From IMG/VR virus record IMGVR_UViG_3300018411_000085, positions 1 to 20,211 of that record: a stretch of 20,211 nt of DNA; one strand, given 5' to 3'. The stretch comes from a virus. Of this stretch, positions 3,166-20,184 are shown one piece after another (the stretch's first letter is position 1; every line of letters starts with the position of its first letter). The notes beneath the pieces were generated by a model. It saw only the letters and a program-made list of their open reading frames with translations, made no database searches and was not told the DNA's origin. Position numbers and translations under genes: made by a program.

Positions 3166-3193
3166 TAATATATCATGGTCATTTTAATGTCAA
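3166..3193 (-). promoter_or_regulatory. Predicted promoter for the hub/baseplate unit
   Basis: On the minus strand the shared motif TGATATATTA occupies 3175-3166, and a perfect TTGACA lies upstream at 3193-3188. The spacer is 15 nt to TATATT or 17 nt if TATTAT is taken as the -10. This is the only one of the six motif copies with a recognisable sigma-A type -35. It sits between the tape-measure terminator and the hub gene, so it can restart transcription for the baseplate genes. Function is inferred. Confidence 0.62.
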
Positions 3194-3194
3194 A

Positions 3195-3225
3195 TAAAAA
3201 AGAACCTACTCATTTGTAGGCTCTT
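3195..3225 (-). terminator. Intrinsic terminator after the tape measure gene
   Basis: Read on the minus strand, a 10-bp stem AAGAGCCTAC / GTAGGTTCTT (3225-3216 with 3209-3200, one G-U pair) with a 6-nt loop is followed directly by a T run. It begins 8 nt past the tape measure stop codon. The typical hairpin plus T tract makes this a confident call. Confidence 0.85.
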
Positions 3226-3232
3226 TCTTATT

Positions 3233-6200
3233 TTATGACTGTCTTGATTCTCTAGTAAAGAAACTTGATATTGTTTCCATAAGTGAGTTACTTGTTTTCT
3301 CAGCAACCCTTTCACCTACTTCATTACCGATATTCTTACCATCTTTACTATCTGTATTTACATTTACATTTACGTTTGTAGTAACATTACCTGTAGAGGC
3401 ACTTGTATACTTCTCAGAACCTTTCATAGTTCTAGCAATCTTATCTGCCCAACCAGGGTCTGTAGCATAGTTGTGTCCTTTACCACTAGGGTCTCTGTTC
3501 ATTGAGGATAACGTAGTTTGACCTTGTGAGTAGTATTCATCAGCAATAAACTTAGAACCCTCAATAATACCTGCTTTAGCACCATCATAACCATAAGCAC
3601 TAGAATAAGGGGTAGCATCAAATGCTCCAATACCGTAGAAGTTGTTTTTATCTTTTACAATATTACTTGTTCCCCAACCAGTTTCAAGGGCTGAATGGGC
3701 TACAAGGTAACGTGGGTCTAACCCTGAAACCTTACCAGCCTCCATATATGCTTCACCTTGGTTGTACATTAGACTACCTTCGGTAGCATTAGAGTTAATC
3801 CATTCATTTAACTGACCAGCGGTTAAAGTATCTACTGTTTTACCTAAGTCATGTTTAGTTAAGTCTGTGTTAGACCAGTACTTACCTTTATCTGTGTAAC
3901 CTAGTTCTCCGCCAACTCCTGAACCGCTACCACTAACAGAGCTACCACTAACAGAGCCTCCACTACCAACACCATCTGTTAAACCAACAATACCATTTTG
4001 TCTTTTAGCAACTGCTAGTACACGAATACACTCTCTTAGTATTTCCTCAGCTTGATTTAGATTATCTTCCTCTAGACCAATAGCTTTCATTCTAGTTTTA
4101 AGATTACTTGTACGTTTAGACTCACTGGCTTGGTCCTCAGCAGTATAAGACCCATTCTCTTTGGCTAGAGCCTCATCGAATGTAGGAGCATTTTCAGATA
4201 CTTGACCTGTTAACTTATCCCAAGTATTACCTGCATCTGTACCAGCCATACCACCTAGTTTAGAACCTCCAATTGCACCACCGATACCACCAAGAGCACC
4301 ACCGATAACAGTACCAATACCTGGTAGAATCATAGTACCGATTGAAGCACCTAGCATAGCCCCACCTTTGGCACCTAAAGCACCACCAGCTACTGAGCCT
4401 GCCCCTTCAATAAGGGCATTATCTTTTTTACCTTCTTCGGCATTGATTACTTTGGAACCAATTTCATACGCTCCTGCTAATGCACCGATTATAGGTAAAG
4501 CTTTACCAGCACCTTTAGATAGTCCGCTAGCTCCTTTAGTTAGTCCACCTAGTCCTCCAAGACCTTTAGCAACGTCATCAGCAGAACTATAAAGACCTTT
4601 GTTTCCTAAGACATCATCAGCACCACCAAGAACTTTACTACCAATGTCGTCTACTGAGCCTTTCGCTTTACCTAGTCCTGAACGCATTCTAGATAGCAGT
4701 CCACCACCACTAGAGGCACCAGCACTTGCACCCTTAACACTTGCACTAGCTCCTACACCACCAAATTCATCAGCGGAACTAAATATTTTACTTCCTAATT
4801 TTGTTCCTTTAAGGTTGTCTGCTATAGGGCTTAACTTAGAAGAAACTTTACTACCAAAGCTTGTTCCTTTAAGTGAGTTAAACATCCCTGCTGTATTGCC
4901 AACTAACGTACCCTCAGCACTTAACTTACTACTTGTCATTTTCTTAAGTACTTGGGAGCCTAACGACATACCACCTGAACTTAAGACACCAGAGGCAATC
5001 CCTCCTGCGAATGAGGATAGTAGGGCACCTGTTCCAGTAGCACCAGTAAACTTGTCAACTATTTTAGCTACGTTAACAGCAATATCTGCCAGCCAGCTAT
5101 CGGTAGAGTTTAAGTTTTTTCTATCTTTGTAAGCCTGTCTAGCATCTCTGTCTGAGTCGGGAGATTCTCCATAGGCTTGGATACGTTCTTCAAACTCTTT
5201 TTGACCCATTCCTTGTGAGCTATCAATAACTCCACTAATACTTTCATCATTAAGCTTACCGTCTTCTCTTAATCTATCAATCTCTTCAAGTTGGTCAGTA
5301 GTTAGTCCGAAACCATAGTCCTCATTAACTCGCATAGCCATACCTAGACGTTCGTCTCGGTCCATACCTTCTGTACCAAAGTTAAACATGCTAGAAATAA
5401 TCTCAGGAGTTACACCCTGTTCTCTAGCTTTAGAGAATTGATAATAACCTCCTAGTCCTTTGTATTCTGTACCTGCACCCATAGCCATACCCAATAGTGA
5501 GTTTGCTTGTGTGCCTCTAACAGCACTATCCATATTACCAATAGCCTGTCCTAGGTTTTCACCTTGTAGGGCTTCATTACCTGTACTTGACATTACTGTG
5601 GCTAATGCTTGTCTTTCAGACAATTCTCGTTCAGATACTCGTCTACCAGCAAATAATTCTTTAGTCATTTCTGACATCATCTTAATTTGCTCTTCTTCTC
5701 TACCAATCATTCCTGATTGTTCAATAGCTCCTAAGAAACCTTCTTGTAGGCTACGGATAGAGTCAGAGTCACCTTCTAAGGCACCACTACGCATTAGACT
5801 ACCCATATAGTCATTCATGGACTGTTGTTCTACAGGAACTACCCTAGAACCTTCACCCATTGCACTAACACTAGCTGTTAACTCATCTGAGGAAAGGTTT
5901 CCCCCACCTCTACGAATAACATCAGCCATTTCCATAGCTTGTGTAGCATTAGTGTATCCCCCATCAATACCAGCATTTGTTATTTCTCTACGGATACTAC
6001 GGTAGTCTTCATTACCTGTCGCTTGACCAATTCTCATAGAAGTTGGTTGTACATCATTATAAATGGACTGTCCTGCTTGAAGTTGGTTTCTTACTGCCAT
6101 ACCACCAGCCATAACGGACATCATACCATAGGTACCTGCCCTAGAGTGGATTGTACCTAGTAAAGTATCTTCCGCTGGTGATACTGATACAGGAGCCTTA

Positions 6201-7096
6201 CCGTCCTTACCCTTTAAATCGTCCTTAGTAGACTCTAGGAAGTCCTGAGCCTCAGTAATACTACCCATTTCCCTATCAATTGCCTTAATAGCATCTTGAA
6301 TGTTCTTAAGGTTCTTTTCCTCTTGTTTAAGGATAACGTTCAATTGATTATACTGGTCCATAGTATCTTCCAAAGCACGTTTTTGGCTACCACTAGCTGG
6401 TTCCCCTATATCTTCAATCTTCTGATTATAGTCACTCATTTGACCTTTAATAGAGTCAATATAATCCTTAATATTGATTTCCTCGGTTGAGGCTAGGTCT
6501 CTATTTCTTCTAGCACTTTCAACTAAACGTTGAGGGTTCTCAATCAATTGTCGGGTACTAACATATCTTTCCGCATCAGGTCCCGACAAGTGTCTAGTGT
6601 TCATTGCTGTTCGATGTATAGACTTGTATTGTGTAAAGGTAGATTGAGTATTTTGTGCGCTACGTTCAGCTCTTGACTTAAATGCTTGTGAACGTTCAAT
6701 ATCATTATAGTAATTACGTGCTGAACCGTATTCATGGAAACCTGCACCCGTACTATCCATTCGTCTATCGAATATATTACGGTTTTGTTTCTCCATTTTC
6801 TTCATTATTTGGTCTACTTTACGTTCGTACTTCTCTAACTCTTTAGTGTCGAAACCATTAGCATCAGCATTAAACATATCTCTATTAATTGTATGTTGTA
6901 ATCTTGAAGCCTCTCTACGAGCACGAATAATTCCCCCTAGGTACTGACTAAAGTTATCGTCACTATTGGGGTCGTTCATTACATTATTTCCGTGGAACTG
7001 TAGTTCACTAATACGGTCCTCTAGACCTTGTATTCGCTCCTCCGCACTACCTGTATCCGCATCAAAACTTAAAATATATTCTTCACGTTGTGCCAA
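3233..7096 (-). CDS. Tail tape measure protein with C-terminal glucosaminidase (GH73-like) domain
   Basis: This 1287-aa protein sets tail length and is ejected at infection. The N-terminal quarter is charged and coiled-coil-like (notably about 206-295). Residues about 320-670 are helical and rich in Met, Gly and Gln. A Ser/Gly/Lys region with degenerate repeats (LKGTxxGSK, SSAD) follows at about 740-855. Residues about 860-960 form a hydrophobic glycine-zipper stretch, the membrane-active part common in tape measures. A Ser/Gly linker leads to a glucosaminidase/FlgJ-like lytic domain at about 1080-1235, with the signature AHSALETGWGTS and catalytic-type Glu1138. The last 50 residues are Asn/Val-rich, then amphipathic. 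The start is a TTG at 7096-7094, supported by AGGTGG 6 nt upstream. It follows the chaperone frames by 16 nt, the usual order of G, G-T and tape measure. A terminator follows its stop. Confidence 0.93.
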   Translation of the reverse strand: MAQREEYILSFDADTGSAEERIQGLEDRISELQFHGNNVMNDPNSDDNFSQYLGGIIRARREASRLQHTINRDMFNADANGFDTKELEKYERKVDQIMKKMEKQNRNIFDRRMDSTGAGFHEYGSARNYYNDIERSQAFKSRAERSAQNTQSTFTQYKSIHRTAMNTRHLSGPDAERYVSTRQLIENPQRLVESARRNRDLASTEEINIKDYIDSIKGQMSDYNQKIEDIGEPASGSQKRALEDTMDQYNQLNVILKQEEKNLKNIQDAIKAIDREMGSITEAQDFLESTKDDLKGKDGKAPVSVSPAEDTLLGTIHSRAGTYGMMSVMAGGMAVRNQLQAGQSIYNDVQPTSMRIGQATGNEDYRSIRREITNAGIDGGYTNATQAMEMADVIRRGGGNLSSDELTASVSAMGEGSRVVPVEQQSMNDYMGSLMRSGALEGDSDSIRSLQEGFLGAIEQSGMIGREEEQIKMMSEMTKELFAGRRVSERELSERQALATVMSSTGNEALQGENLGQAIGNMDSAVRGTQANSLLGMAMGAGTEYKGLGGYYQFSKAREQGVTPEIISSMFNFGTEGMDRDERLGMAMRVNEDYGFGLTTDQLEEIDRLREDGKLNDESISGVIDSSQGMGQKEFEERIQAYGESPDSDRDARQAYKDRKNLNSTDSWLADIAVNVAKIVDKFTGATGTGALLSSFAGGIASGVLSSGGMSLGSQVLKKMTSSKLSAEGTLVGNTAGMFNSLKGTSFGSKVSSKLSPIADNLKGTKLGSKIFSSADEFGGVGASASVKGASAGASSGGGLLSRMRSGLGKAKGSVDDIGSKVLGGADDVLGNKGLYSSADDVAKGLGGLGGLTKGASGLSKGAGKALPIIGALAGAYEIGSKVINAEEGKKDNALIEGAGSVAGGALGAKGGAMLGASIGTMILPGIGTVIGGALGGIGGAIGGSKLGGMAGTDAGNTWDKLTGQVSENAPTFDEALAKENGSYTAEDQASESKRTSNLKTRMKAIGLEEDNLNQAEEILRECIRVLAVAKRQNGIVGLTDGVGSGGSVSGSSVSGSGSGVGGELGYTDKGKYWSNTDLTKHDLGKTVDTLTAGQLNEWINSNATEGSLMYNQGEAYMEAGKVSGLDPRYLVAHSALETGWGTSNIVKDKNNFYGIGAFDATPYSSAYGYDGAKAGIIEGSKFIADEYYSQGQTTLSSMNRDPSGKGHNYATDPGWADKIARTMKGSEKYTSASTGNVTTNVNVNVNTDSKDGKNIGNEVGERVAEKTSNSLMETISSFFTRESRQS
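3926..3955. repeat. 15-bp perfect tandem repeat, two copies, in the tape measure linker
   Basis: The plus-strand unit gctaccactaacaga occurs twice back to back (3926-3940 and 3941-3955), and a degenerate continuation follows. It encodes a Ser-Val-Ser-Gly type linker just before the glucosaminidase domain. A tandem repeat of in-frame unit length can expand or contract without breaking the frame. Confidence 0.85.
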
Positions 7097-7112
7097 TTAA
7101 AACCACCTACCT

Positions 7113-7655
7113 TTATATCCACAACTCGTCATCATCATCTTCAAAGTCCTCTAAACCTACAATATCATTTGTACTTAATGTTTCCTCAGTTACTACCTTA
7201 CTATCTCTAAGTTTCTTTCTTTCCATAAACTCATTAGCAGTAATCTCACCATTATTTAATCTTTCAGTATCCTTAGCCTCTTCTAAAGCTTTTTGGATAT
7301 TGTTTTGTACAGTAAGCTCAGTCTCTTGTAGTTTCTCAGTATCATTACCTTCTTCTAACATTTCATTAATCTGTTCTCGTTTCTTCTTAGCCTCTTCGTT
7401 CTCTATACGTTCTACAGACTCTTCCATTTTATCATAATCAATGTCATAGTCAATATCTGTAAACTCGTCTTCATACCAACTAGTGTCAGGGTCTTTAAAT
7501 GACTCATCATCACCCTTATTCTTACTAAAGGCTTTCTCTCTTTGAATTATATCCTCTTCCATGTTAGATAGGATAAATGCAACCTGTTCACTTGTTAGTT
7601 CTTGGAACCTTGGGTCTGTAGGAAGTACTTTAAACTCTCGCATGATTATCCACAT
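7113..7655 (-). CDS. Tail assembly chaperone, downstream (T-like) frame, probably made by frameshift
   Basis: The frame from ATG 7655 encodes 180 aa, but that ATG is probably not the real start. The same frame is open upstream to about 7718 and beyond, encoding AQDSISSEDFNWTIKQPYSR directly before MWIIMREF, which reads like genuine protein. There is no Shine-Dalgarno sequence before ATG 7655 or ATG 7643, whereas almost every other gene here has a strong one. Position between tube/sheath and tape measure, plus a first frame ending just upstream, matches the gpG/gpGT-type tail chaperone arrangement of lambda and many other phages. If fused at the proposed slip site, the product would be about 343 aa. 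The C-terminal region is rich in Glu, Lys and Asp with helical character, then a very acidic end (EDFEDDDDELWI). The chaperone role is inferred from position and architecture. Confidence 0.8.
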   Translation of the reverse strand: MWIIMREFKVLPTDPRFQELTSEQVAFILSNMEEDIIQREKAFSKNKGDDESFKDPDTSWYEDEFTDIDYDIDYDKMEESVERIENEEAKKKREQINEMLEEGNDTEKLQETELTVQNNIQKALEEAKDTERLNNGEITANEFMERKKLRDSKVVTEETLSTNDIVGLEDFEDDDDELWI

Positions 7656-7707
7656 ATTACGTGAATAGGGTTGTTTAATCGTCCAGTTAAAGTCCTCAGA
7701 ACTTATA

Positions 7708-8145
7708 CTATCTTGTGCGAAATGAGCTACGGAAGTCCGCGTAATCCTCCGATACCATTAGAGGAATGTCTAAGTTATAACTTTTTTCAATATCTAAAAC
7801 ATCAGGTACTTTGTATCCTTTAGGTGAACATACTACAATTAAAGCAAATAGATAGTAAATATCAAAGTATGCTTTAGGTACGAACTCTGCTACACCATTT
7901 AAGTATCGTGCCATCAATCCTGAGATAGCTCCCTCTTCTAAAGCATTGGGAATGTGTACCTCTACGTCAAACTCAACGTCTCCATACTCAGGTCCAAGCT
8001 TATAGTGTTTCTTAAAAGTATCGTTCTCACCACGAATAATCTTTGTGTAGTTCTCCTTAGCCTTTACCTGTTTCTCGTTATCAGCTCTACGTTTCTTTTC
8101 TTCTTCTGTTAATCCTTCTTGTTCAAAGTCTTTATTCTCTACCAT
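7708..8145 (-). CDS. Tail assembly chaperone, upstream (G-like) frame
   Basis: This 145-aa protein lies first in the unit that leads to the tape measure gene. It has a charged, Lys/Glu-rich N-terminus (about 1-45) and then a compact mixed domain containing VHIPNALEEGAISGLMARYLNG and YFDIYYLFALIVVCSPKGYKVPD, resembling the first tail chaperone of other long-tailed phages. The start ATG has GAGGAG upstream and lies about 46 nt below a predicted promoter. It ends with SSFRTR and a TAG at 7710-7708. The next frame is open through this stop, so part of the ribosomes probably shift to make a longer G-T fusion. The fold is not recognised with certainty. The role is inferred from order (tube, chaperones, tape measure). 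Confidence 0.8.
   Translation of the reverse strand: MVENKDFEQEGLTEEEKKRRADNEKQVKAKENYTKIIRGENDTFKKHYKLGPEYGDVEFDVEVHIPNALEEGAISGLMARYLNGVAEFVPKAYFDIYYLFALIVVCSPKGYKVPDVLDIEKSYNLDIPLMVSEDYADFRSSFRTR
7716..7722 (-). other. Candidate +1 programmed frameshift site (TTT-C) between chaperone frames
   Basis: Frame 0 reads TCA TTT CGC ACA AGA TAG. The downstream frame lies one base later (or two back). At TTT CGC the Phe tRNA could re-pair from TTT to TTC and continue with GCA CAA GAT. The downstream frame's last in-frame stop is a TAA about 35 nt upstream (7757-7755), so the shift must occur between that point and the TAG at 7710-7708. Of the codons in this interval, only TTT followed by C lets the same tRNA re-pair well. 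A GGAGG at 7750-7746 lies 23 nt upstream, farther than in the classic prfB site. Confidence 0.55.
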
Positions 8146-8198
8146 ATATGTCTCCTCTTTCCTATTATATTAACCTTTTGGTCTTGTTTACTCAAATA

Positions 8199-8208
8199 TA
8201 ATATAGCA
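8199..8208 (-). promoter_or_regulatory. Predicted promoter for the chaperone-tape measure unit
   Basis: TGCTATATTA on the minus strand, immediately downstream of the tail tube terminator and 54 nt upstream of the first chaperone ATG. It is one of six identical or near-identical motif copies in the window. No clear -35 is seen, since that region is occupied by the terminator stem. Confidence 0.6.
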
Positions 8209-8211: not shown

Positions 8212-8239
8212 AAAAAAGGACTAGATTTCTCTAGTCCTT
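8212..8239 (-). terminator. Intrinsic terminator after the tail tube gene
   Basis: A perfect 10-bp stem AAGGACTAGA / TCTAGTCCTT (8239-8230 with 8225-8216), with a 4-nt loop, is followed by a T tract on the minus strand. It lies 21 nt past the tube stop codon and directly before a promoter motif. Confidence 0.9.
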
Positions 8240-8260: not shown

Positions 8261-8689
8261 TTACTTAGCATCTCCACTAGATGAGTTTAAGAATTTCCAT
8301 GTAGAACTTTCTGAAACCATTGAGTTTGCTGAGAACTCCTCAGAGATACTCTCTGCTGAACAGCCATGATAGATAACGATTACTTCTTTAGAGTACTTAT
8401 CAATCACTCGAATGTCAATAACGTCCTTGTGAATAATATCTGTACCTAAAGCACCGAAACCTAATTTATCTAATGACTCTTTCTTCATACGTAAACGTTC
8501 CAAAGTGATTGTACCATCAAATTGTAGGTATACGTGTTCAGCTGGTGCTAAGTCACCAATTTCATAAGCCCCTGTAGTACCAAAGTCTCGAGAGGCTTGT
8601 AAGCTTTGTGCACGACCGATAACATGGTTCCCAATCATAAGAAGGACCGTATTACCAGTTTGAATAGTTTGCTTTTGTTCTGTTGCCAT
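8261..8689 (-). CDS. Tail tube protein
   Basis: This 142-aa protein should form the inner tail tube through which DNA passes. Length and position immediately after the sheath gene match the tube protein of SPO1-like phages, which is close to this size. Recognisable parts are the N-terminal TGNTVLLMIGNHVIGRAQSL, the central loop with FDGTITLERLRMKK, and a C-terminal beta segment, all compatible with the tube fold shared with type VI Hcp. The start ATG has AAAGGA upstream. The gene is 19 nt downstream of sheath with no promoter motif between, so sheath and tube should be co-transcribed. A strong terminator ends the unit, as expected for the two highly expressed tail proteins. Confidence 0.9.
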   Translation of the reverse strand: MATEQKQTIQTGNTVLLMIGNHVIGRAQSLQASRDFGTTGAYEIGDLAPAEHVYLQFDGTITLERLRMKKESLDKLGFGALGTDIIHKDVIDIRVIDKYSKEVIVIYHGCSAESISEEFSANSMVSESSTWKFLNSSSGDAK

Positions 8690-8708
8690 CTATCTATCAG
8701 TCCTTTCC

Positions 8709-10415
8709 TTACGCTGAGATTGTTTGCATTTTGTAAACAATGCTAGCATCAACTTTACGTAAACTCATAATTGGGTAAACTGTAAATGTTACGCTTGCAA
8801 CGTTTCCGTTAATAACTACTTGAATATCTTCTGCATCATAATCTTGTACTTCATTTTCTCGTACCTTTTGGTCTAAGAATGAGATAATATCTGTCTTGAT
8901 GATTGAAGGAGATAACATACTGTTTTTAGTACCGATAAAGTTTTCCTCTAAGCGGTTACGTAACTCAGATACTAGGAAGTCATGTGCCTCACCAGCAGAG
9001 TTAGTATTCTTAATAGGGTTACTTGGGTCACGGTAAGTAGTCAAGTCTTCGTCAATACGGAAGTTAGTTACTTCTTGGTTACGGTTGAAACCAGCCATGA
9101 TAACACCACTAGTGTTTAGTGAGTCCATTGTGTTAGCATCGTGAACTGTTGAAAGCTCAGTTAATGCAAATGGTTTAAACATGATTGATTCACCTAAAGC
9201 TACAGCAGAAGTGTAACCTGCTACTTGTGAAGCCATTAAGTAACCAGGAATTTGTAATTGTCGTCCGTCACTCATAGTACGTTTACCTGAGAAACCTACG
9301 TAAGAAACACGGTCTGATTTAAGAGCAGATGCTCGTGACATAACCTCGTTAGGTTGTTCATCATATTTACCACCTACGATAGCTCGCATTGGTTCACCTT
9401 CGTTTGTACGTTCAGTAACAAAGTGTCGAGCCTCTGAATGGATTGTTTGTGAGTCTGTCAATGGTACTAAGTAGTAACCACCTTGGTTAGCTAACTGTGC
9501 AAATTTACTTGCCCATGAAGTAGGAGAGGTTCCGTTGTCTCCACCTGTTAAGTTTACAGGACCAAAGTTTTCTAATGCTGTACCAGCGTTAGTTACTTCA
9601 ACACTTACTAAGTTAGAGTATGCTAACTGGTTTTCAATGTCAGCGTATAGTCCAGTTACTTTAACTGGTGTTCCTTTATTAATAACTGTTTCTGAAATTG
9701 GGTCTAACCCTTTTGTAGCGATGTTCTTATCGCCTGTGAATCCCATAGTAGCTTCAAATCCAGCTACTGATGAAATAGCATTTGCTAAGTCAAATGCGTC
9801 TACGTAAATACCTTTGTCTCCTAAAGAGAACTTAGCCTCTACTGCTGTTACTGCATCTGCACCTGATGATAGGATTAATTCTTGTGCTTGTCCTTGTGTA
9901 CCAGTAATTTCTACTGAGGCATAAGGAGATTCACCTTCGTAAGCTACTGTAAAGATAGTACCTAAACCATCATAAACTGTGTCTTCACCGTTTAATGAAA
10001 CTTTTAATCGTTTATCACCAAAGGCATTATCGTCTAATTCAATATTAATTGAGTTAGCCTCTTCACCATAAATTAGTGATTCAAATTTAAGTCCACCTTG
10101 TGTTAAAGTAGCATTTGTTGCCTCTTGTGCACGAATAGCTAGGATTTCTCCTGCTGAGATATTAGTCATAGATGGATTCCATGCTAATTCCATTGCATCT
10201 ACTAAGTCACCACTACGGAAAATGTCTCGTGCTTGAACCATATTAGTTAAGCGATAAACAGTATTAGGTTTACCACCCTCCGCATTACCAACTAACATTA
10301 AAGTTTTGTTAGAATCAGAGGCTGAACCAGTTACTGCTGATGTATCTGAGAACACTCGAGCATGTGGTCTAGTAGTTGGACGTTTTGGAAACGCTTCTGT
10401 ATAATCAACTGCCAT
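8709..10415 (-). CDS. Contractile tail sheath protein
   Basis: This 568-aa protein polymerises around the tube and contracts at infection. Size is very close to the sheath of A511 and phage K. The C-terminal conserved sheath domain is clear: residues about 445-568 include RIDEDLTTYRDPSNP, then DFLVSELRNRLEENFIGTKN, then DIISFLDQKVRENE, and the ending VTFTVYPIMSLRKVDASIVY. The N-terminal third carries beta-rich insertions typical of outer sheath domains. The start ATG has AAAGGAGAG upstream, which is formed by the last codons of the preceding 91-aa gene, so that gene and sheath are tightly packed and perhaps coupled. It is the third gene of the unit starting at about 11.57 kb. Confidence 0.95.
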   Translation of the reverse strand: MAVDYTEAFPKRPTTRPHARVFSDTSAVTGSASDSNKTLMLVGNAEGGKPNTVYRLTNMVQARDIFRSGDLVDAMELAWNPSMTNISAGEILAIRAQEATNATLTQGGLKFESLIYGEEANSINIELDDNAFGDKRLKVSLNGEDTVYDGLGTIFTVAYEGESPYASVEITGTQGQAQELILSSGADAVTAVEAKFSLGDKGIYVDAFDLANAISSVAGFEATMGFTGDKNIATKGLDPISETVINKGTPVKVTGLYADIENQLAYSNLVSVEVTNAGTALENFGPVNLTGGDNGTSPTSWASKFAQLANQGGYYLVPLTDSQTIHSEARHFVTERTNEGEPMRAIVGGKYDEQPNEVMSRASALKSDRVSYVGFSGKRTMSDGRQLQIPGYLMASQVAGYTSAVALGESIMFKPFALTELSTVHDANTMDSLNTSGVIMAGFNRNQEVTNFRIDEDLTTYRDPSNPIKNTNSAGEAHDFLVSELRNRLEENFIGTKNSMLSPSIIKTDIISFLDQKVRENEVQDYDAEDIQVVINGNVASVTFTVYPIMSLRKVDASIVYKMQTISA

Positions 10416-10420
10416 TTAAT

Positions 10421-10696
10421 TTACTCTCCTTTTAAATATTTTTCTAGGTATACAAGGAACTCTTTCTCATCTTCTAATAGATATTTACCTTGCATGTACC
10501 CTTTGAAACCAGCAATCTGCATTTGAGATAACCCATATCTTGGGGTAGCTGATTTAATGAAATCATTAATATTTGCAAATGATTTCTTTTTAGGTTTTGT
10601 ATTATCGTCTTTAGCTTTTACAGATTGTTTACCCTTAGTATCTTGCTTAGGGGTATACTCTTTTTTAGTTTCTGTATTTTCTTTTTCAACTGCCAA
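10421..10696 (-). CDS. Small basic protein of unknown function, upstream of sheath
   Basis: A 91-aa protein I do not recognise. The first 40 residues are Lys/Thr/Glu-rich and probably disordered. The rest (SFANINDFIKSATPRYGLSQ followed by MQIAGFKGYMQGKYLLEDEKEFLVYLEKYLKGE) looks like a small helical domain. The start is a TTG at 10696-10694 with AAGGAG 9 nt upstream. The final Lys-Gly-Glu-stop supplies the ribosome binding site of the sheath gene, 5 nt away. A small gene at this position is seen in other SPO1-like phages, but its function is unknown to me. Possible roles are a neck or sheath-assembly accessory. Confidence 0.75.
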   Translation of the reverse strand: MAVEKENTETKKEYTPKQDTKGKQSVKAKDDNTKPKKKSFANINDFIKSATPRYGLSQMQIAGFKGYMQGKYLLEDEKEFLVYLEKYLKGE

Positions 10697-10709
10697 TTTT
10701 TACAACTCC

Positions 10710-11537
10710 TTATCTAGTAATTAATTTGCTCAACTCGTAGGCGGAATTATATTCTACTGAATGAGTTACGATATATGTTAGATTTAGGGTTCTAGCATAT
10801 ACAGGTCTGTCACCATCACTTATCATTTCTTTTAGGGAAGAGAAGTCACTTTTTGAAAGGTTATACGTAAATTGTTCGTCTTTGGACTCTCTCATAATGA
10901 TAAATATTGTTTTTAGTATAATATCTAAACACCGCAACGTGTCAATGTTTGTGCTCAATGCTGTAATTCCTACACGCTCAGCGGACTGATAACCATAGCT
11001 TATACCATGAGCTTTCTGTCCTCCTGTGTAGTAATGAATGTTAAAGGATTCTCCTACTAGCCACTCATTATTGTTAGCATTGATTGTAAGGTAGGAGTCT
11101 TCAAAAGATAAGTTATCTTCTTCTGAGAACTCAATTCCCTCTATATGACTTAAGTCATTAATAGGATTAGAGAGCTTCATATACAACTTGTCTTCATCTT
11201 CACCATACTGAAACTCTCCATACTCGTTGACAAGATTGCTTGCAATATAATCATAGTTACCTGTAACACTACCAAGAGAGCCATCTCTCTTACTATCTTT
11301 CATGGTACTTGGTCCTACCTCTATTACAAACGCATTAAAGTCTGATTTAGATTGTGGGTATGTGTAAAGTACATTAATCTCTTTACCTTCTTCTCCACCA
11401 AAAGTTTCTATAAATCGTTCTCTAGCTTTCTCATCAATATTCTGTAAGGTTTCATTCAGTACAGCTTTATCTTTTAGTAATTGGTTAAGCAAGCCTTTGA
11501 CTTTGTTAAACACATAAGTATCAACGCTTTTAATCAT
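10710..11537 (-). CDS. Head-tail joining / probable tail terminator protein
   Basis: A 275-aa protein between the gp10-like gene and the sheath, where other contractile-tailed phages encode the tail terminator or joining protein. Its N-terminus is helical (VDTYVFNKVKGLLNQLLKDK). The middle is beta-rich and charged. The C-terminus contains ALSTNIDTLRCLDIILKTIF and RPVYARTLNLTYIVTHSVEY, a pattern compatible with a terminator-type fold with a final beta segment. The start ATG has AGAGG upstream and lies about 20 nt downstream of a predicted promoter, making it the first gene of a four-gene unit (this, the 91-aa gene, sheath, tube). The role is inferred from position. No catalytic motif is seen. 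Confidence 0.7.
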   Translation of the reverse strand: MIKSVDTYVFNKVKGLLNQLLKDKAVLNETLQNIDEKARERFIETFGGEEGKEINVLYTYPQSKSDFNAFVIEVGPSTMKDSKRDGSLGSVTGNYDYIASNLVNEYGEFQYGEDEDKLYMKLSNPINDLSHIEGIEFSEEDNLSFEDSYLTINANNNEWLVGESFNIHYYTGGQKAHGISYGYQSAERVGITALSTNIDTLRCLDIILKTIFIIMRESKDEQFTYNLSKSDFSSLKEMISDGDRPVYARTLNLTYIVTHSVEYNSAYELSKLITR

Positions 11538-11564
11538 CTTATTACCTCTTTCAATTACTGTTCT

Positions 11565-11574
11565 TAATATATCA
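11565..11574 (-). promoter_or_regulatory. Predicted promoter for the sheath-tube unit
   Basis: TGATATATTA on the minus strand in the 45-nt gap between the gp10-like gene and the 275-aa gene. One of six copies of the motif. No clear -35 hexamer. The predicted leader is about 20 nt. Confidence 0.6.
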
Positions 11575-14350: not shown

Positions 14351-14386
14351 AAAAAAGGGATAAGAGGTTTAACCCTCCTACCCCTT
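14351..14386 (-). terminator. Intrinsic terminator after the major capsid gene
   Basis: On the minus strand a 13-bp stem AAGGGGTAGGAGG / CCTCTTATCCCTT (14386-14374 with 14367-14355, two G-U pairs), with a 6-nt loop, is followed by a T run. It starts 15 nt after the capsid stop codon. It is the strongest hairpin of the three terminators. Confidence 0.88.
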
Positions 14387-14401: not shown

Positions 14402-15874
14402 TTAGTAAACTTTTAATTCGTTTGTAGCTGTATAAGCCAAGTTTTTAATGTGAACAAATTTACGTGGAGTAAATAGTCCTAACGCACCATACCATAATAC
14501 AGAGAATGTAGTTGTAGCATTAGTACGAGCTAATGGTAATTGCATAACTGGTAACAATTCGTATAAAGTAATTGCATCAGAAGTGAATTGACCAACGAAA
14601 GCATCAGCAGTATCAGGAATAATATCGTTTTTATCTACGAATTTCAATTCAGACTGACCTTTAGTTGCAACACGTCCAATTAATTGGAAGTTTCCTGATT
14701 TACCTTTACGGTAGATAGTTACGAATTGAGGTGATTGTTGGTACATAGTTTGTAAAGTTACTGTTAACTCTACTGCACCAGTTTTGTCAGATACTGTAGC
14801 TGTAGCAGGAGCTGATTTAGCAGAAACTGCATCTTCACCATTTACTGTTACAACGTATTCTAATTCACCTAAGTCTTCTTCACGGAAGTTACCTGTAACA
14901 CCTGTTGCTAATGTAGCTACGATTTTAGCAGGTAGTGGAGCATTACGTGAAGGTTTGAATACTTCATCTAAAATGTTATCTGTTTCCATGATTGTAGAAC
15001 CATGTAATGAGATACGACCAGCAACTGTATCAGCTTTAGTAATGTTGATACCAGTTGTCATGTTTCCATTTCCATCAGCAACTAATGCAACTTGACGGTC
15101 TTGGTAACGGTTGTTGAACTCGTTTAATACACCGATTGGCATAATAGCATCTGTTGGAGTACCGAAACCTTTAGCAATTCGAGTCGCCGCTAGGTTAATT
15201 AATTGTTCAGATAAAGCTTCACCACGAGCGTCAATTACGTTCTCAGGAGCATCTTTAGCAATCAATTTAGCTAAACCATCAAATTGTAGACCTTGACCAG
15301 TTTCTGTAGAATCAGATAAGTCAGCATCACCGTAGAATGAAGCCCACTCAATTGTTTTAGCTGTTACACGTAAAGCAGATTCAACTTGAATTGTTAATGG
15401 AGATACTGTGTTGTCTACAATTTGTGAAGCAATTGTAACTCGGCGAGTATCAGATAAGAATTTCAAGTTAATAGCTCTACGGATGATACTTGGGTCATTT
15501 TCAGGAGCTACTTCGGGCTCACGTACAAATCGAGTTGCCCCAACTTCACCATAAGAAGTTAATACGTTGTGTTGTACAACTGTGTTGTTAACTTGTGATT
15601 TAGGTACTAAGTCATAGAAGTATAAGTCTTGCTCACGGAAAGTTAAAGTAGTTAAATCATCTTTTAAGTACTGTGCACGTAGTGCAGAACCGTTTGCTAA
15701 TTCCTCAGGGTTAATTTCATGTCCTGTAGATAATGCTTTAGATAACTCGTCATCTTGAGCTTGCTCTACTTGTTCCGCCTGTGCTACCACACCTGGAACC
15801 ATTTTGTCTAAAGTGTCTTTTTGGAAATCCGCTAGGATACCAACACCTACACCTTTTTCTTTTAGTTTATCCAT
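14402..15874 (-). CDS. Major capsid protein (HK97 fold, SPO1/A511 type)
   Basis: A 490-aa capsid protein that should form the icosahedral shell. The core is the SPO1-like coat family: AKTIEWASFYGDADLSDS, then GLQFDGLAKLI, VIDARGEALSEQLINLAA, KGFGTPTDAIMPIGVLNEF and the C-terminal LPVMQLPLARTNATTTFSVL closely match what I remember of A511 Cps. The N-terminus (about 1-60) is helical and probably a processed or scaffold-like arm, since a prohead protease is encoded just upstream. Residues about 314-425 look like an inserted Ig/FN3-like beta domain (PAKIVATLATG to QFVTIYRKGKSGNFQLIGRV) that would project from the capsomer. The start ATG has AAAGGA about 11 nt upstream. A dedicated promoter motif, a long structured leader and a terminator make this a single-gene high-output unit. 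Confidence 0.96.
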   Translation of the reverse strand: MDKLKEKGVGVGILADFQKDTLDKMVPGVVAQAEQVEQAQDDELSKALSTGHEINPEELANGSALRAQYLKDDLTTLTFREQDLYFYDLVPKSQVNNTVVQHNVLTSYGEVGATRFVREPEVAPENDPSIIRRAINLKFLSDTRRVTIASQIVDNTVSPLTIQVESALRVTAKTIEWASFYGDADLSDSTETGQGLQFDGLAKLIAKDAPENVIDARGEALSEQLINLAATRIAKGFGTPTDAIMPIGVLNEFNNRYQDRQVALVADGNGNMTTGINITKADTVAGRISLHGSTIMETDNILDEVFKPSRNAPLPAKIVATLATGVTGNFREEDLGELEYVVTVNGEDAVSAKSAPATATVSDKTGAVELTVTLQTMYQQSPQFVTIYRKGKSGNFQLIGRVATKGQSELKFVDKNDIIPDTADAFVGQFTSDAITLYELLPVMQLPLARTNATTTFSVLWYGALGLFTPRKFVHIKNLAYTATNELKVY

Positions 15875-15946
15875 TCGTTAAATGTTCCTTTCTCTTTTAG
15901 AGTATTGAATTGTTTCTAGTCTTATATAAAAGTAGAAATAGGGTCA

Positions 15947-15986
15947 GTACATGTAGCGAGGAGCCTATCTGTAGGACTACATGTAC
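15947..15986 (-). promoter_or_regulatory. Hairpin in the leader of the major capsid gene
   Basis: Inverted repeat with two perfect 10-nt arms, GTACATGTAG (15986-15977) and CTACATGTAC (15956-15947), enclosing 20 nt that contain a second small stem CCTA-CAGA-TAGG. It lies inside the predicted roughly 125-nt 5' leader, about 70 nt before the start codon. There is no T tract, so it is not an intrinsic terminator. It could protect the message, control translation or bind a protein. Function is unknown. Confidence 0.7.
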
Positions 15987-16005
15987 CTTTCCCATTTACT
16001 AACAT

Positions 16006-16015
16006 TAATATATCA
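16006..16015 (-). promoter_or_regulatory. Predicted promoter for the major capsid gene
   Basis: TGATATATTA on the minus strand in the 184-nt gap between scaffold-like and capsid genes, one of six copies of the motif. Transcription starting about 7 nt below it would give a leader of about 125 nt that contains the hairpin. No clear -35 is seen. Confidence 0.6.
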
Positions 16016-16058
16016 CTTGTCAGAACTTTGTGTTATTTAGGAATTAAAATACACTAAA

Positions 16059-17114
16059 TTATTTATTTAAGAAGGACTTAACCAACTCAAATTGTTCTTT
16101 ATTCTGACTTCCGTTGTTAATATCTAAGAACGCTCTACGTAAATCTTCACGGTATCCGTTGCTATAACCTGATGATTTATATGCTTTAGCTAGTTCATCT
16201 AAGAACTCTTGTCGGTGGTTATTCATAAACTCTTGAGGATTTTCTTTAACCTCTGTAGCCTCTACCATACCATCAAAAGATTTAGCTGTAGTTTCTTCTT
16301 CTTCTTTAGGTTCTTCTTCTAAAGTTTCTTGAATATGTGAAGCATCTTTACTTGCATATCCAACCGCATCTTCATCATCTTGGGTAACAGATTTAATTGC
16401 TTGCTCATCATCATTCTCACGATTTTGAGTTGCTACCTTAACTGATTTAGAAGTAACTTCTTCTTCTTCTTCTTCAACCTCAGCAGGCTCTTCTTCTTCT
16501 TTAGGTTCTTCTACTTCTTCGGCTTCAATAACAGCCTCAGGTTCATCCTCAGTAACTTCTTCTACAGGTTCTTCTTCCTTAATAGTTTCAGCCTCTACTT
16601 TAGGTTCTACCTCTTGTTCAACTGGTTCAGATTCAACTGTCTCTGTTACTAAACCTTTTGTAACTGTATCCTCTAATTGAGTGATACGGTCATCAATACG
16701 TGCCATAGATGAGTCAAGGATAGACTTAATAGCTTCAAACATGTCAGACTCGGATTTCTTAGCTTTGTCTTCATCGTCTTCTTCGTCATCTTTAGAATCT
16801 TTAGAATCTTCCTCTTCTTCGTCCTCATCTTCCTCTTTAGAATCTTTAGTAGATTTCTCTACTTCTTCTTTTGGTTCTTGAGTCTCAGCAGGTTCTTCTT
16901 CTTTAGTTTCTACTACTTCTTCTTTAGGTTCTTCTACAGGTTCTTTGTCCTCAGCCTCTTCATAAGATGATTCAGCGTTAGTTTCGTGTACCTCAATCTC
17001 AGGCGCATGTTCCTCAACATCCTGTGAAACTTGTTCAACCTGTTCTTGTTTTACATCGTTCTCTTGTTCTGTAGACTTCTCGAATTGTTCTAAAATTGTT
17101 CCTTCTGTTTCCAA
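16059..17114 (-). CDS. Acidic scaffold-like protein
   Basis: A 351-aa, very acidic protein lying between the prohead protease and the major capsid protein, the normal place of the capsid scaffold. Residues about 1-280 are low-complexity Glu/Lys/Val/Asp with KDSKDD-type repeats around 90-125 and a helical segment at about 125-165 (MFEAIKSILDSSMARIDDRI, then TQLEDTVTKG) that could form a coiled coil. The last 65 residues (from about FMNNHRQEFLDELAKAYKSS to VKSFLNK) form a basic/mixed helical domain, as expected for the coat-binding end of a scaffold. The start is a TTG at 17114-17112 with GGGAG about 9 nt upstream, 4 nt after the protease stop. The role is inferred from composition and neighbours. 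No homology can be claimed for the disordered part. Confidence 0.72.
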   Translation of the reverse strand: METEGTILEQFEKSTEQENDVKQEQVEQVSQDVEEHAPEIEVHETNAESSYEEAEDKEPVEEPKEEVVETKEEEPAETQEPKEEVEKSTKDSKEEDEDEEEEDSKDSKDDEEDDEDKAKKSESDMFEAIKSILDSSMARIDDRITQLEDTVTKGLVTETVESEPVEQEVEPKVEAETIKEEEPVEEVTEDEPEAVIEAEEVEEPKEEEEPAEVEEEEEEVTSKSVKVATQNRENDDEQAIKSVTQDDEDAVGYASKDASHIQETLEEEPKEEEETTAKSFDGMVEATEVKENPQEFMNNHRQEFLDELAKAYKSSGYSNGYREDLRRAFLDINNGSQNKEQFELVKSFLNK

Positions 17115-17118
17115 GGTT

Positions 17119-17916
17119 CTAATCTCCCTTCTCAGTTAAGTTACTTACAAATGAGTCAGCCTCATCATAACTTAAACCTTTTGCTAGTTGTAATAATAAA
17201 ATATCTGTGTCTTTATCATTACGTTCAGTTTCTTTAAGCATCTTACTTACTTGGTTCCATAATCCAGTATCGTTTGACTTTCTAGCCTCAGCGATAACTG
17301 TCATAGCACTTAATACTTTTTCTCGTCTTAGTGCCTCAGCATCTTCTACCTCAGCAGGGTTTGTTTCCACTCCTGTTTGCCAAGACTTAACTAATGTTTC
17401 CCATGTTGCATTTGGATTGGCAGGGTGAGTAGTTAAAGCTACGTTAGTAATCATAACACTCTCAATAACATTTTTACTTACTGTGTTACGTTTACGAACT
17501 TTACCCTCGATTGAGAATCCAATCTTTCTACCCATACCATCATTATTTAAGTTGTTAGCTAGTCGCCATAACTCTTGAGCATACTCATTAGACTTCATTA
17601 GCTTAGCCTCTACGAATAATCCTTTTTGGAAATCTACGTAAGAGTTTTCTGTTGGAACACCAATAATGTGTTCGGGTCTGTTTGAATGTTCATAGTTAAT
17701 ATAACCTGATTTGATAAAGTAATTAATATCAATACCTTGTGGTTCTACGACTTCACCTTGTAGGTCTAGGTCAGGGGTAGAGGCATAGCCTCGTACATAC
17801 CAGTCACCTACTGAGGTTTCTGTACCGTTGCTGTCTACTGTTACTTCTGTTGATTTAACAATCTCAGCAGGGACGAAAATATTCATGTTTGTTTCTTTCG
17901 TTAACAATTCTTCCAT
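17119..17916 (-). CDS. Prohead maturation protease
   Basis: This serine protease should cleave scaffold and capsid N-termini during head maturation. The prohead protease signature is visible: DWYVRGYASTPDLDLQGEVV, then YINYEHSNRPEHIIG with catalytic-type His77, and GRKIGFSIEGKVRKR with catalytic-type Ser135 (numbered from the ATG chosen here, 265 aa). The frame is open to a TTG at 17943, but that start would lie upstream of the strong AGGAGG at 17935-17930 and only about 5 nt from the predicted transcription start. I therefore place the start at ATG 17916-17914 (13 nt from AGGAGG). A TTG at 17925-17923 (4 nt from it) is the alternative. Position between portal and scaffold is canonical. The C-terminal third is helical and charged. 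Confidence 0.9.
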   Translation of the reverse strand: MEELLTKETNMNIFVPAEIVKSTEVTVDSNGTETSVGDWYVRGYASTPDLDLQGEVVEPQGIDINYFIKSGYINYEHSNRPEHIIGVPTENSYVDFQKGLFVEAKLMKSNEYAQELWRLANNLNNDGMGRKIGFSIEGKVRKRNTVSKNVIESVMITNVALTTHPANPNATWETLVKSWQTGVETNPAEVEDAEALRREKVLSAMTVIAEARKSNDTGLWNQVSKMLKETERNDKDTDILLLQLAKGLSYDEADSFVSNLTEKGD

Positions 17917-17955
17917 TGTGGTCAATGCACCTCCTATTACCAATAATTACGCTCT

Positions 17956-17965
17956 TAATATAGCA
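17956..17965 (-). promoter_or_regulatory. Predicted promoter for the protease-scaffold unit
   Basis: TGCTATATTA on the minus strand, starting 3 nt after the portal stop codon and about 30-50 nt upstream of the protease start. One of six copies of the motif. Its position makes the TTG at 17943 unlikely as the protease start. Confidence 0.6.
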
Positions 17966-17967
17966 AG

Positions 17968-19758
17968 TTAGTCATTATTGTTAGGGTCTAGGCTTGTTGC
18001 GTGGGAGTTTGCGTTATCTTCTCCTTTAATCTGACCATCTTTACCAACTTCACCAGTTGTTCCTGAGCCATTTACTTTGCTACTTGAACCATCCAGTCCT
18101 CTTTGTTGTTCTTGGAAGTTGTTAGCATCACTTGTGTCCTCACCTGTACGAGTAGTCCCGCTTGAGTTAGAAGTAGGTTTATCTCCATCAGGTTTGTTTG
18201 GGTTCTCATAAGTGATAGGTGTCTTTGTATTTTCCATAAGGAATGCTAACCGTTCTTGTTGTTTCTTATATAGGAATTGTTCTTGTTGGTAAATTTGACC
18301 ACGTCTCTGAACGATTACACCATTGGCTGGAATGTCTCCACCAATTATATCACCAGTAAGTCCTAGCTCTCTACGAGCTTCATTGATTGTCTGAGCAACC
18401 TTAGTCTTCTCTGTAATGACATTAATCTTTTCTAGTTGTTCAGCAATGTCGCCACCAACAAATTGGAATGTAAATTCTTCACCCAACTCATTGATAATGT
18501 TGTTATTGATTACATCCTCTATAAACAACAATAAAGGCAATAAGCCTTTTTTCTGTGAGTCTTGAGTTTTTCTACTTGTCGTACCGCAACTAATCGAACA
18601 ACTAGAACCACTTGCACCTGAATTATTCGGGAAGTTACTCTCGGTAGGGTCTATTTGGAATAAACTAGTAATGGTGTTAATTAACATGTTGGTCCATTTC
18701 TCAAATTGCATATCGTTAGCACTAGGGGTCATGTTAACGAACTTAGCATCCTCAGCTGTAATTACTGGAATCTTCCAGCTTGCATTTGCACCTGATACTG
18801 AGTTTTGCCATTCTCTACGGAAAGCCTCTAGAGATACTTGAGACTGTTGTCCCATGGGTTTAATATTTAGTAAACCTCTAGTTGTTCCTCCGTGAGAGAA
18901 GAACATGTCATTAAATTTTAATGTACTTGTGTAGGCATTGAATAATGGTAAACCAATTTCTAGTTCTGACCAACCATATCCAGCTGAGTAAATATCACTT
19001 CGAGGGTTTCTAACAGCAAATGCCATCTCCTTCTCGTCATATCTAGTTACAATCTGACTATCAATTACCTGTACATACATAGTTCCTCGCTTAGGTTTAT
19101 TACCGTTCTTATCCGTACCAATGAAAATAGTTGTAGGGTCAACTAATTCAAAGAACTTCAATTCACCTTTTTTACTATCATAAACCTTTTCAAAGTTTAC
19201 TTGGTCATATGTATAAGTGTCTCTTACAATCTTCTTTAAGAAAGTTACAAAGGAGTCTCTACTAGGGTTGTATTCATCTCCTGTGTTTGTAAGAAAGTCT
19301 TCAATCTCTCTCATACGTTTCTCTTGTCGTTTTGTCGGTACTGCTGATATATCTTTTAATCTTACTTGAAAGCCTTGACCTTTTTCTGAGTATCTAGACG
19401 GTCTAGCGAACATAGACACTTGGTTAGCTCTTGTATTGATAATAGAGTTTAGAATTAAGTTACCTGAATACTGTTTTAGTATTAGATGAACGTTTCTAGT
19501 ATCAGTAGCACCTTTAGTTTTATATCCCATTCCTGAATCAATGTTTCCAATCAGTAAGGGTTCTGAGTAAGAGTTAATATTTTTACCGTTATAGGACTTA
19601 TTAATTTCCTCTGTTTGTTCTTTAGCTGACTCTGTCTTAGGGCTATTTAGTTTATCATAAATTGTCTTTATCCTAACCGAATAATCGTCAGTAACGTTAA
19701 ATACTTGCTCTTGTTCCTTATCTTCCTCTTTTTTGAAGAAGTTAAATAATTTTGCCAT
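17968..19758 (-). CDS. Portal protein
   Basis: A 596-aa portal protein that should form the dodecameric DNA gateway at one capsid vertex and dock the terminase. The SPO1-like portal pattern is visible: LNSIINTRANQVSMFARPSR (about 103-122), the stem/wing region VDPTTIFIGTDKNGNKP (about 206-222), SELEIGLPLFNAYTSTLKFN (264-283), and SLFQIDPTESNFPNNSG before a Ser-rich loop and KKGLLPLLLFIEDVINNNII. The C-terminal about 80 residues are Asn/Gly/Ser/Asp-rich and disordered. Residues 385-396 contain the only two cysteines (C387 and C391) in a Ser-rich loop. The ATG follows the 121-aa gene by 28 nt with a modest ribosome binding site (GGTGGTGAAGAG). The length is slightly greater than the portal of phage K-like viruses as I recall them. 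Confidence 0.93.
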   Translation of the reverse strand: MAKLFNFFKKEEDKEQEQVFNVTDDYSVRIKTIYDKLNSPKTESAKEQTEEINKSYNGKNINSYSEPLLIGNIDSGMGYKTKGATDTRNVHLILKQYSGNLILNSIINTRANQVSMFARPSRYSEKGQGFQVRLKDISAVPTKRQEKRMREIEDFLTNTGDEYNPSRDSFVTFLKKIVRDTYTYDQVNFEKVYDSKKGELKFFELVDPTTIFIGTDKNGNKPKRGTMYVQVIDSQIVTRYDEKEMAFAVRNPRSDIYSAGYGWSELEIGLPLFNAYTSTLKFNDMFFSHGGTTRGLLNIKPMGQQSQVSLEAFRREWQNSVSGANASWKIPVITAEDAKFVNMTPSANDMQFEKWTNMLINTITSLFQIDPTESNFPNNSGASGSSCSISCGTTSRKTQDSQKKGLLPLLLFIEDVINNNIINELGEEFTFQFVGGDIAEQLEKINVITEKTKVAQTINEARRELGLTGDIIGGDIPANGVIVQRRGQIYQQEQFLYKKQQERLAFLMENTKTPITYENPNKPDGDKPTSNSSGTTRTGEDTSDANNFQEQQRGLDGSSSKVNGSGTTGEVGKDGQIKGEDNANSHATSLDPNNND

Positions 19759-19786
19759 TTAGTTACTCTTCACCACCTTTAATGCC

Positions 19787-20152
19787 TTATACATAATAAG
19801 AAATATGTGAGTCATCTAAGAATGTTTCCCCATTAGGGAGTTCAACTTCAACAAGGTTAGGGATGTCCTCGTTGTAGAAGAATCTTTTTCTTGACTCATA
19901 TACTTTCGTATAATCTTCTGACTCAACTTCATTCTCTTGATTTAATAATAAAACATTTCCAGTATCTGAAATACCTAACACTCTGTGGTTTGAACCTTCT
20001 TCTAGGGAAATAAATAACTGAACGTTCTTTCCACCAAAGCTGTTATAGTAATCAATTGCTCTCACCCAGTCATTAGGGAAATCAGGGTTTCTAGCATACA
20101 TTTTAGAATCCATCCATGTTTTATCTTCTTCAAAAACGTAAATGTTAATCAC
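19787..20152 (-). CDS. Protein of unknown function upstream of portal
   Basis: A 121-aa acidic protein I do not recognise. It has alternating beta-like segments (INIYVFEEDKTW, then NVQLFISLEEGSNHRVLGIS, DTGNVLLLNQENEVE, VEVELPNGETFLDDSHISYY) and no membrane segment, signal peptide or catalytic motif. The only start that uses the full frame is a GTG at 20152-20150, but the ribosome binding site AGGAG ends 1 nt before it, which is unusually close. The next in-frame ATG is codon 14 and has only a weak GAAGAAG upstream. It lies first in the unit with the portal, about 15 nt below a predicted promoter. A role in packaging or portal assembly is possible from position only. Confidence 0.7.
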   Translation of the reverse strand: MINIYVFEEDKTWMDSKMYARNPDFPNDWVRAIDYYNSFGGKNVQLFISLEEGSNHRVLGISDTGNVLLLNQENEVESEDYTKVYESRKRFFYNEDIPNLVEVELPNGETFLDDSHISYYV

Positions 20153-20174
20153 ACTCCTCGTATCGTGTCTATAT

Positions 20175-20184
20175 TAATATAGCA
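20175..20184 (-). promoter_or_regulatory. Predicted promoter for the 121-aa and portal unit
   Basis: TGCTATATTA on the minus strand at the right edge of the window, about 22 nt upstream of the GTG of the 121-aa gene. One of six copies of the motif. The predicted leader is about 15 nt. No clear -35 is seen in the 27 nt available. Confidence 0.58.

What the first reader, a model, noticed from the sequence alone, without database searches (positions are those of the whole stretch)
3166..20184. Six copies of one promoter-like motif, TGNTATATTA, mark the transcription units of the structural module
The sequence shows TGCTATATTA at 20184-20175, 17965-17956 and 8208-8199, and TGATATATTA at 16015-16006, 11574-11565 and 3175-3166. 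All are on the coding strand, all are in gaps just before a gene, and I found none inside genes. The motif resembles an extended -10 (TGn-TATATT) followed by a fixed A, and only the copy at 3.17 kb has a TTGACA -35. SPO1 late promoters are known to have a GATATT -10 with a phage-encoded sigma factor, so this may be the equivalent late promoter of this phage group. The absence of a common -35 suggests a modified or phage-specific polymerase.
Basis: partly seen in the sequence, partly recalled or inferred. Interest (0 to 1): 0.62.

Follow-up and report, generated by a model that had tools for sequence, protein, structure and literature searches.

The report
Late promoters of an Aerococcus phage
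Six identical short DNA signals sit in front of the capsid and tail genes of a virus that infects Aerococcus bacteria; they are almost certainly the switches that turn on its particle-building genes late in infection, the same kind already mapped by RNA sequencing in related Staphylococcus and Listeria viruses.

Summary
TGNTATATTA occurs exactly six times in the window, all on the coding strand, all in gaps before genes; shuffles average 0.37. The window is 94.8% identical to Aerococcus phage AVP, Herelleviridae. In AVP 13 of 15 copies are intergenic, 10 of them in the late module. The near-identical TGNTATAATA is confined to the early end (early 13:0, late 0:10, p = 9e-7).

New here: the Aerococcus regulon; copies at the same five operons across three subfamilies, three of them also in a fourth; a G 6-7 nt downstream at 10/10 Aerococcus late-module sites, matching the published start; and AVP_137, missed in the AVP paper, as the late sigma. 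The gene overlapping it (PHROG_1089, 'unknown') is probably the counterpart of SPO1 gp33. The 3.17-kb copy overlaps a host-type promoter. No Aerococcus phage transcripts exist, so start sites and sigma dependence are inferred. Verdict: new member of a known kind.

The parts
20175..20184 (-). late promoter -10 element TGCTATATTA, 61 nt before the pre-portal gene (AVP_70 start); predicted start G at 20169
   Evidence: start by the offset rule
17956..17965 (-). late promoter TGCTATATTA in the 42-nt gap between portal and prohead protease; predicted start G at 17950
   Evidence: same position in nine other genera
16006..16015 (-). late promoter TGATATATTA, 131 nt before the major capsid gene; predicted start G at 15999
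11565..11574 (-). late promoter TGATATATTA before the g79-g80-sheath-tube operon; predicted start G at 11558; in Twort-, Listeria- and Enterococcus-type phages this promoter is inside g79
8199..8208 (-). late promoter TGCTATATTA directly after a terminator, before the tail assembly chaperone; predicted start G at 8193
3166..3175 (-). late promoter TGATATATTA before the tail lysin gene; predicted start G at 3159
3165..3193 (-). overlapping host-type (sigma-A) promoter TTGACA-17-TATTAT, so a possible dual promoter
3205..3220 (-). terminator-like hairpin CCTAC-AAATGA-GTAGG followed by TTCTTTTTT, just upstream of the 3.17-kb promoter
   Evidence: read; weak stem, plus-strand version listed
8216..8239 (-). 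intrinsic terminator (10-pair stem) after the tail tube gene, 7 nt before the 8.2-kb promoter
14355..14386 (-). intrinsic terminator (13-pair stem) after the major capsid gene
17968..19758 (-). portal protein, expressed from the 20.18-kb promoter
   Evidence: PHROG portal
17119..17925 (-). prohead protease, expressed from the 17.96-kb promoter
   Evidence: PHROG_1028
14402..15874 (-). major capsid protein, expressed from the 16.01-kb promoter
   Evidence: PHROG_752
8261..11537 (-). g79, g80, tail sheath and tail tube, expressed from the 11.57-kb promoter
   Evidence: PHROG_1000 for g79; AVP annotation of sheath and tube
3233..8145 (-). tail assembly chaperone (two ORFs) and tape-measure/tail lysin, expressed from the 8.2-kb promoter
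   Evidence: PHROG_1038, 4988, 1047
668..3133 (-). tail protein with lysin activity, expressed from the 3.17-kb promoter
   Evidence: PHROG_1015

Best explanation
The six sites are the late promoters of the structural module of an Aerococcus phage of family Herelleviridae. Early in infection host RNA polymerase with sigma-A reads TTGACA/TGn-TATAAT promoters. These include a perfect one (TTGACA-17-TATAAT) in front of AVP_133-137, the gene cluster that ends with the late factors. The late sigma (AVP_137, counterpart of SPO1 gp34), probably with the small protein encoded just upstream (AVP_136, candidate counterpart of SPO1 gp33), then binds host core polymerase. This holoenzyme reads the 10-base element TGn-TATATT-A without a -35 and starts at a G 6-7 nt further on. 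Six such starts, some placed directly after terminators, split the window's genes into units for portal, protease/scaffold region, capsid, sheath/tube, chaperone/tape measure and tail lysin. Shown: motif, placement, synteny, initiator-G signature, lack of a -35, presence of the sigma. Inferred: timing, start sites, and use of this sigma by this motif in Aerococcus phage.
For: Six exact copies against 0.37 expected. AVP: 13/15 intergenic against 14% non-coding DNA, p = 5e-10; of 35 permutations of the seven bases TATATTA it has the most intergenic hits, with the sigma-A-like TATAATT second. TGNTATAATA and TGNTATATTA are mutually exclusive between early and late modules. Orthologous copies before portal region, protease, capsid, g79 and chaperone in Kay-, Silvia-, Sepuna-, Pecentum-, Schiek- and Kochikohdavirus; at protease, capsid and chaperone also in Nituna- and Goettingenvirus. 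Pooled 60 sites: -35 match 2.65 against 2.64 shuffled; G enriched 2.5-fold at +6 and +7; Aerococcus late module 10/10. Late timing and the same motif measured in Kayvirus and Listeria phages. AVP_137 = PHROG_1025 sigma, E = 1e-53.
Against: No RNA data exist for an Aerococcus phage. Nobody has shown biochemically, in any of these phages as far as I found, that the phage sigma reads this motif. TGn-TATATT could also be used by sigma-A as an extended -10. The TG is mostly missing in the most distant genera that keep the core. Window and AVP are too similar (motif 60/60 identical, flank 97.6%) for flank drift to be tested inside Aerococcus phages.
Confidence: 0.88

Rival explanations
1. They are ordinary extended -10 promoters read by host sigma-A; late timing would come from an anti-sigma or copy number, not from a new sigma.
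For: TGn-TATATT is one base from the sigma-A extended -10; the 3.17-kb copy has an overlapping TTGACA-17-TATTAT, and the minus-strand copy at AVP 92.7 kb has TTGACA-18.
Against: Early and late 10-mers do not mix; no -35 in pooled late sites; the core follows the phage family across hosts from Staphylococcus to Bacillus; no homologue of the G1/K anti-sigma was found in AVP by tblastn.
Confidence: 0.1
2. The motif is a binding site for a phage activator or a DNA-processing signal, not a -10 element.
For: Ten fixed bases with no second element is unusual for a promoter.
Against: Published 5' ends in Listeria phage CKA15 and coverage steps in Kayvirus lie at the same motif; G at +6/+7; coding-strand orientation.
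Confidence: 0.01
3. Chance matches in AT-rich intergenic DNA.
For: The window is AT-rich, and with one mismatch counts are near chance.
Against: 0 of 100 shuffles reach six; synteny across genera.
Confidence: 0.005

Closest known systems
Kayvirus late promoters (Staphylococcus phages vB_SauM-515A1 and K; PMC7698491, PMC9241854, PMC10383478)
   Same: TGnTATATTA -10 box, no -35, initiator G about 6 nt downstream, mainly in the structural module, phage sigma present
   Different: Third base is mostly T in Kayvirus, A or C in Aerococcus phage; five of six copies have an orthologous place, but the copy before g79 is intergenic here and inside the gene in Kayvirus
Pecentumvirus late promoters (Listeria phage CKA15; PMC12282133)
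   Same: TGCTATATTA, no -35, 5' ends mapped by ONT-cappable-seq, late genes, homologous sigma (39-42% identity)
   Different: Third base nearly always C (5 of 6 in the structural region)
SPO1 late promoters (CGTTAGA-N18-GATATT, gp33/gp34; cited in PMC3601020)
   Same: Core ATATT of the -10; homologous sigma gp34 with an overlapping upstream gene in the same order
   Different: SPO1 has a -35 and no TGn; TGNTATATTA is absent from the structural module of the SPO1-like phage SP8
T4 late promoters (TATAAATA; gp55, gp33, sliding clamp gp45; from general knowledge)
   Same: Works alike in outline: a long -10 only, a small sigma plus a co-factor
   Different: Different motif; no relationship of the proteins tested; a role for a sliding clamp was not examined

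Membership tests
Herelleviridae (Kay/Pecentum-type) late promoter | -10 box TG[TC]TATATTA or very close | tested here: met
   six exact TGNTATATTA; N = A or C
Herelleviridae (Kay/Pecentum-type) late promoter | no conserved -35 | tested here: met
   pooled late sites equal shuffles; one exception at 3.17 kb
Herelleviridae (Kay/Pecentum-type) late promoter | start at a G about 6 nt after the box | tested here: inconclusive
   G at +6 or +7 in 10/10 Aerococcus late-module sites, p = 1e-5; no transcript mapped
Herelleviridae (Kay/Pecentum-type) late promoter | placed before structural and packaging genes, coding strand | tested here: met
Herelleviridae (Kay/Pecentum-type) late promoter | phage encodes the gp34-type sigma | tested here: met
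   AVP_137, PHROG_1025, E = 1e-53, next to recA as in phage K; a 93.5% identical environmental contig also carries its start. Not in the window itself, which is a 20-kb fragment.
Herelleviridae (Kay/Pecentum-type) late promoter | late transcription | not testable with these tools
   no RNA data for Aerococcus phages
SPO1-type late promoter | CGTTAGA-17/19-GATATT | tested here: not met
   -10 is TATATT, not GATATT, and no conserved upstream element
host sigma-A promoter | TTGACA, 17 nt, TATAAT | tested here: not met
   five of six sites lack a TTGACA -35; the 3.17-kb site overlaps TTGACA-17-TATTAT
SPO1 gp33 family (for AVP_136 / PHROG_1089) | sequence homology to gp33 and position overlapping gp34 | tested here: inconclusive
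   an ORF of this size ends at or overlaps the sigma start in 11 of 12 genomes, 67 nt before it in Dionysus; gp33 ranks first of 56 SPO1 proteins, score 29.2 against 16.2, P = 1.4e-4, probability only 52%; function untested

The most novel reading that the evidence does not exclude
All non-SPO1 Herelleviridae share one ancestral two-protein late transcription machine: the gp34-type sigma plus a so far unnamed gp33 counterpart (PHROG_1089; K gp118, AVP_136). It reads a -10-only promoter with core TATATTA. The SPO1 branch differs by a GATATT -10 and a -35. The missing late factor sought in phage K would then include K gp118.
Probability: 0.5. Interest if true: 0.6.

Novelty: new member of a known kind. 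Interest (0 to 1): 0.4.

Why it matters
It extends a late promoter class known from Staphylococcus and Listeria phages to Aerococcus phages and, by synteny, to Enterococcus and many Bacillus phages, giving a simple rule for marking late operons in Herelleviridae, including phages considered for therapy. A 2024 study of phage K (PMC11598898) states that late promoters and the phage factors that read them are not understood; the conserved 10-mer and the sigma plus PHROG_1089 gene pair are direct, testable candidates, next to the host rpoC mutations that block late transcription.

Tried and rejected
Flank drift between window and AVP: too similar to be informative. Anti-sigma of phage K (gp137) in AVP: no tblastn hit; AVP_119 lies at the syntenic place but is not detectably related. 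SPO1 middle sigma gp28 in AVP: no hit. AVP_45, called the sigma factor in the AVP paper: 72 aa, only sub-threshold hits, rejected. Sequence search of solved structures with the sigma alignment: nothing significant. AlphaFold model of the Listeria sigma: moderate (pLDDT 67, pTM 0.41); the best Foldseek hits are nearly all sigma factors, many of the sigma2+sigma4 type, but with E no better than 0.01, so only supportive. SPO1-type late promoters in SP8's structural module: no convincing set at these operons. Rfam and tRNA scans of the window: nothing.

Full report
What is there. TGNTATATTA occurs exactly six times in the 20,211-base window, all on the minus strand, which is the coding strand of all the genes; 100 dinucleotide shuffles give a mean of 0.37 and a maximum of 3. 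All six lie in gaps before a gene. With one mismatch allowed the count is near chance, so the whole 10-mer is the signal. The sigma-A-like 10-mer TGNTATAATA is absent from the window.

Where it comes from. The window is a virus record held as a 20,211-base fragment, 94.8% identical over its whole length to positions 39,280-59,546 of Aerococcus phage vB_AviM_AVP, MH729379, family Herelleviridae. AVP is the complete reference used here.

Genome-wide behaviour in AVP. There are 15 exact copies; 13 are intergenic although 86% of the genome is coding (p = 5e-10). Of the 35 permutations of TATATTA placed after TGN, this one has the most intergenic hits (13; mean 1.5); second is TATAATT, the sigma-A form. 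Ten of the 13 lie in the late module (37.6-90 kb). In that module TGNTATATTA has 10 intergenic copies and TGNTATAATA none; in the early module (0.5-9 kb) the counts are 0 and 13 (Fisher p = 9e-7). One base pair in the -10 hexamer thus separates the two sets.

Flanks. Pooling 60 late-module sites from ten genera, no upstream position is conserved, and the best match to TTGACA at 16-18 nt spacing is the same as in shuffled sequence (2.65 against 2.64). Downstream, G is found at +6 in 45% and at +7 in 43% of sites against 18% background. In Aerococcus phage all ten late-module sites have a G at +6 or +7 (p = 1e-5). This is the place where the Kayvirus RNA-seq study put the first transcribed base, also enriched for G (PMC7698491). 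The exception for the -35 is the 3.17-kb copy: TTGACA lies 15 nt before TATATT but 17 nt before an overlapping TATTAT, an 11/12 sigma-A match. It may serve both early and late.

Synteny. The motif sits at the same five operons (pre-portal region, prohead protease, capsid, g79/sheath, tail assembly chaperone) in Kayvirus, Silviavirus, Sepunavirus (Twortvirinae), Pecentumvirus (Jasinkavirinae), Schiekvirus and Kochikohdavirus (Brockvirinae), and at protease, capsid and chaperone in Nitunavirus and Goettingenvirus (Bastillevirinae). The third base follows the lineage: T in Staphylococcus phages, C in Listeria, Enterococcus and Bacillus phages, A or C in Aerococcus phage. In Brochothrix (Klumppvirus) and Lactobacillus (Harbinvirus) phages the core TATATTA is kept before several of these genes, mostly without TG. 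It is missing in the SPO1-like phage SP8. All distinct capsid leaders examined outside SPO1-like, Brochothrix and Lactobacillus phages have the full TGN motif.

A promoter that moved. In Twort-, Listeria- and Enterococcus-type phages the sheath-operon copy is inside g79, at the codons for Cys-Tyr-Ile-Ile (about codons 24-28). In Bacillus phages the same codons keep CTATATTA but lose TG through a Cys-to-Arg change. In Aerococcus phage the protein has no such residues and the motif lies 27 nt before the start codon. The operon keeps the element even where the codons that contained it have gone; that the internal copy is an active promoter is an inference.

Prior knowledge. Kayvirus late promoters: TGTTATATTA, no -35, 12 sites, mostly in the structural region (PMC7698491). 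Phage K late promoters: no -35 (PMC9241854). Listeria phage CKA15: TGCTATATTA at 25-40 min by ONT-cappable-seq, no -35 (PMC12282133). A 2017 in silico study of a Kayvirus (PMC5618024) had failed to find it.

Who reads it. The AVP paper named ORF45 as a sigma factor (PMC6409932); that 72-aa protein has only sub-threshold hits. AVP_137, two genes downstream of recA, is the real candidate: PHROG_1025 RNA polymerase sigma factor, E = 1e-53, with homologues in all 12 genomes examined, including the SPO1-like one. Pfam finds sigma region 2 weakly, and region 4 only in one member. The model of the Listeria homologue resembles two-domain sigma factors, weakly. A perfect TTGACA-17-TATAAT promoter lies before AVP_133, upstream of the cluster AVP_133-137. 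A short inverted repeat within the cluster after AVP_133 was not assessed as a terminator, so co-transcription up to the sigma is not proved.

A possible second factor. In SPO1, gp33 ('sigma factor accessory') overlaps gp34 and acts with it in late transcription (PMC3601020). In 11 of the 12 genomes an ORF of 104-135 aa ends at or overlaps the sigma start; in Dionysus it ends 67 nt before. Outside SP8 these belong to one family (AVP's member is PHROG_1089, unknown function). A profile of nine of them ranks gp33 first among 56 SPO1 proteins, score 29.2 against 16.2 for the next, P = 1.4e-4, though the alignment covers only 47 columns and the probability is 52%. I regard this as a likely but unproved homology.

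Limits. No transcript data for Aerococcus phages; no biochemistry linking this sigma to this motif; annotation-based intergenic calls; genera are related, so pooled counts are not independent.

Noticed in passing
L003:15582-15923 (AVP_136); K gp118 (NC_005880 110898-111251): Small gene next to or overlapping the late sigma gene in all genomes examined, PHROG_1089 'unknown function'; probable counterpart of SPO1 gp33, the late-transcription co-factor.
   Followed up: yes
window 15875-16002, minus strand: The capsid mRNA leader forms a strong hairpin near its 5' end (dG -29.9, z -3.2); in AVP a U-A pair becomes C-G and a G-C becomes G-U. Many other genera have an unrelated-sequence hairpin at the same place, several with CCUCC or CUCCU in the loop; Silvia- and Twort-type leaders lack it.
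   Followed up: partly
window 7113-7760, minus strand: The ORF annotated 'RNA polymerase' (AVP_84) is the C-terminal part of a tail assembly chaperone (PHROG_4988 covers both ORFs); its frame is +1 to the first ORF and open back to 7760, overlapping the first ORF's end, so a programmed frameshift is possible.
   Followed up: partly
window 11565-11574 and L021-L026 g79 genes: The sheath-operon late promoter is inside g79 (about codons 24-28) in other genera but intergenic in Aerococcus phage.
   Followed up: yes
L001:24663-24881 (AVP_45): Called a sigma factor in the AVP paper; only sub-threshold hits, probably a mis-annotation.
   Followed up: yes
L002:42724-42733 (AVP 92,724-92,733), minus strand: The only minus-strand copy, TTGACA-18-TGATATATTA, in a 2-kb stretch (90.6-92.8 kb) without annotated genes; possibly a promoter for a non-coding RNA, as phage K has long non-coding RNAs.
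   Followed up: no
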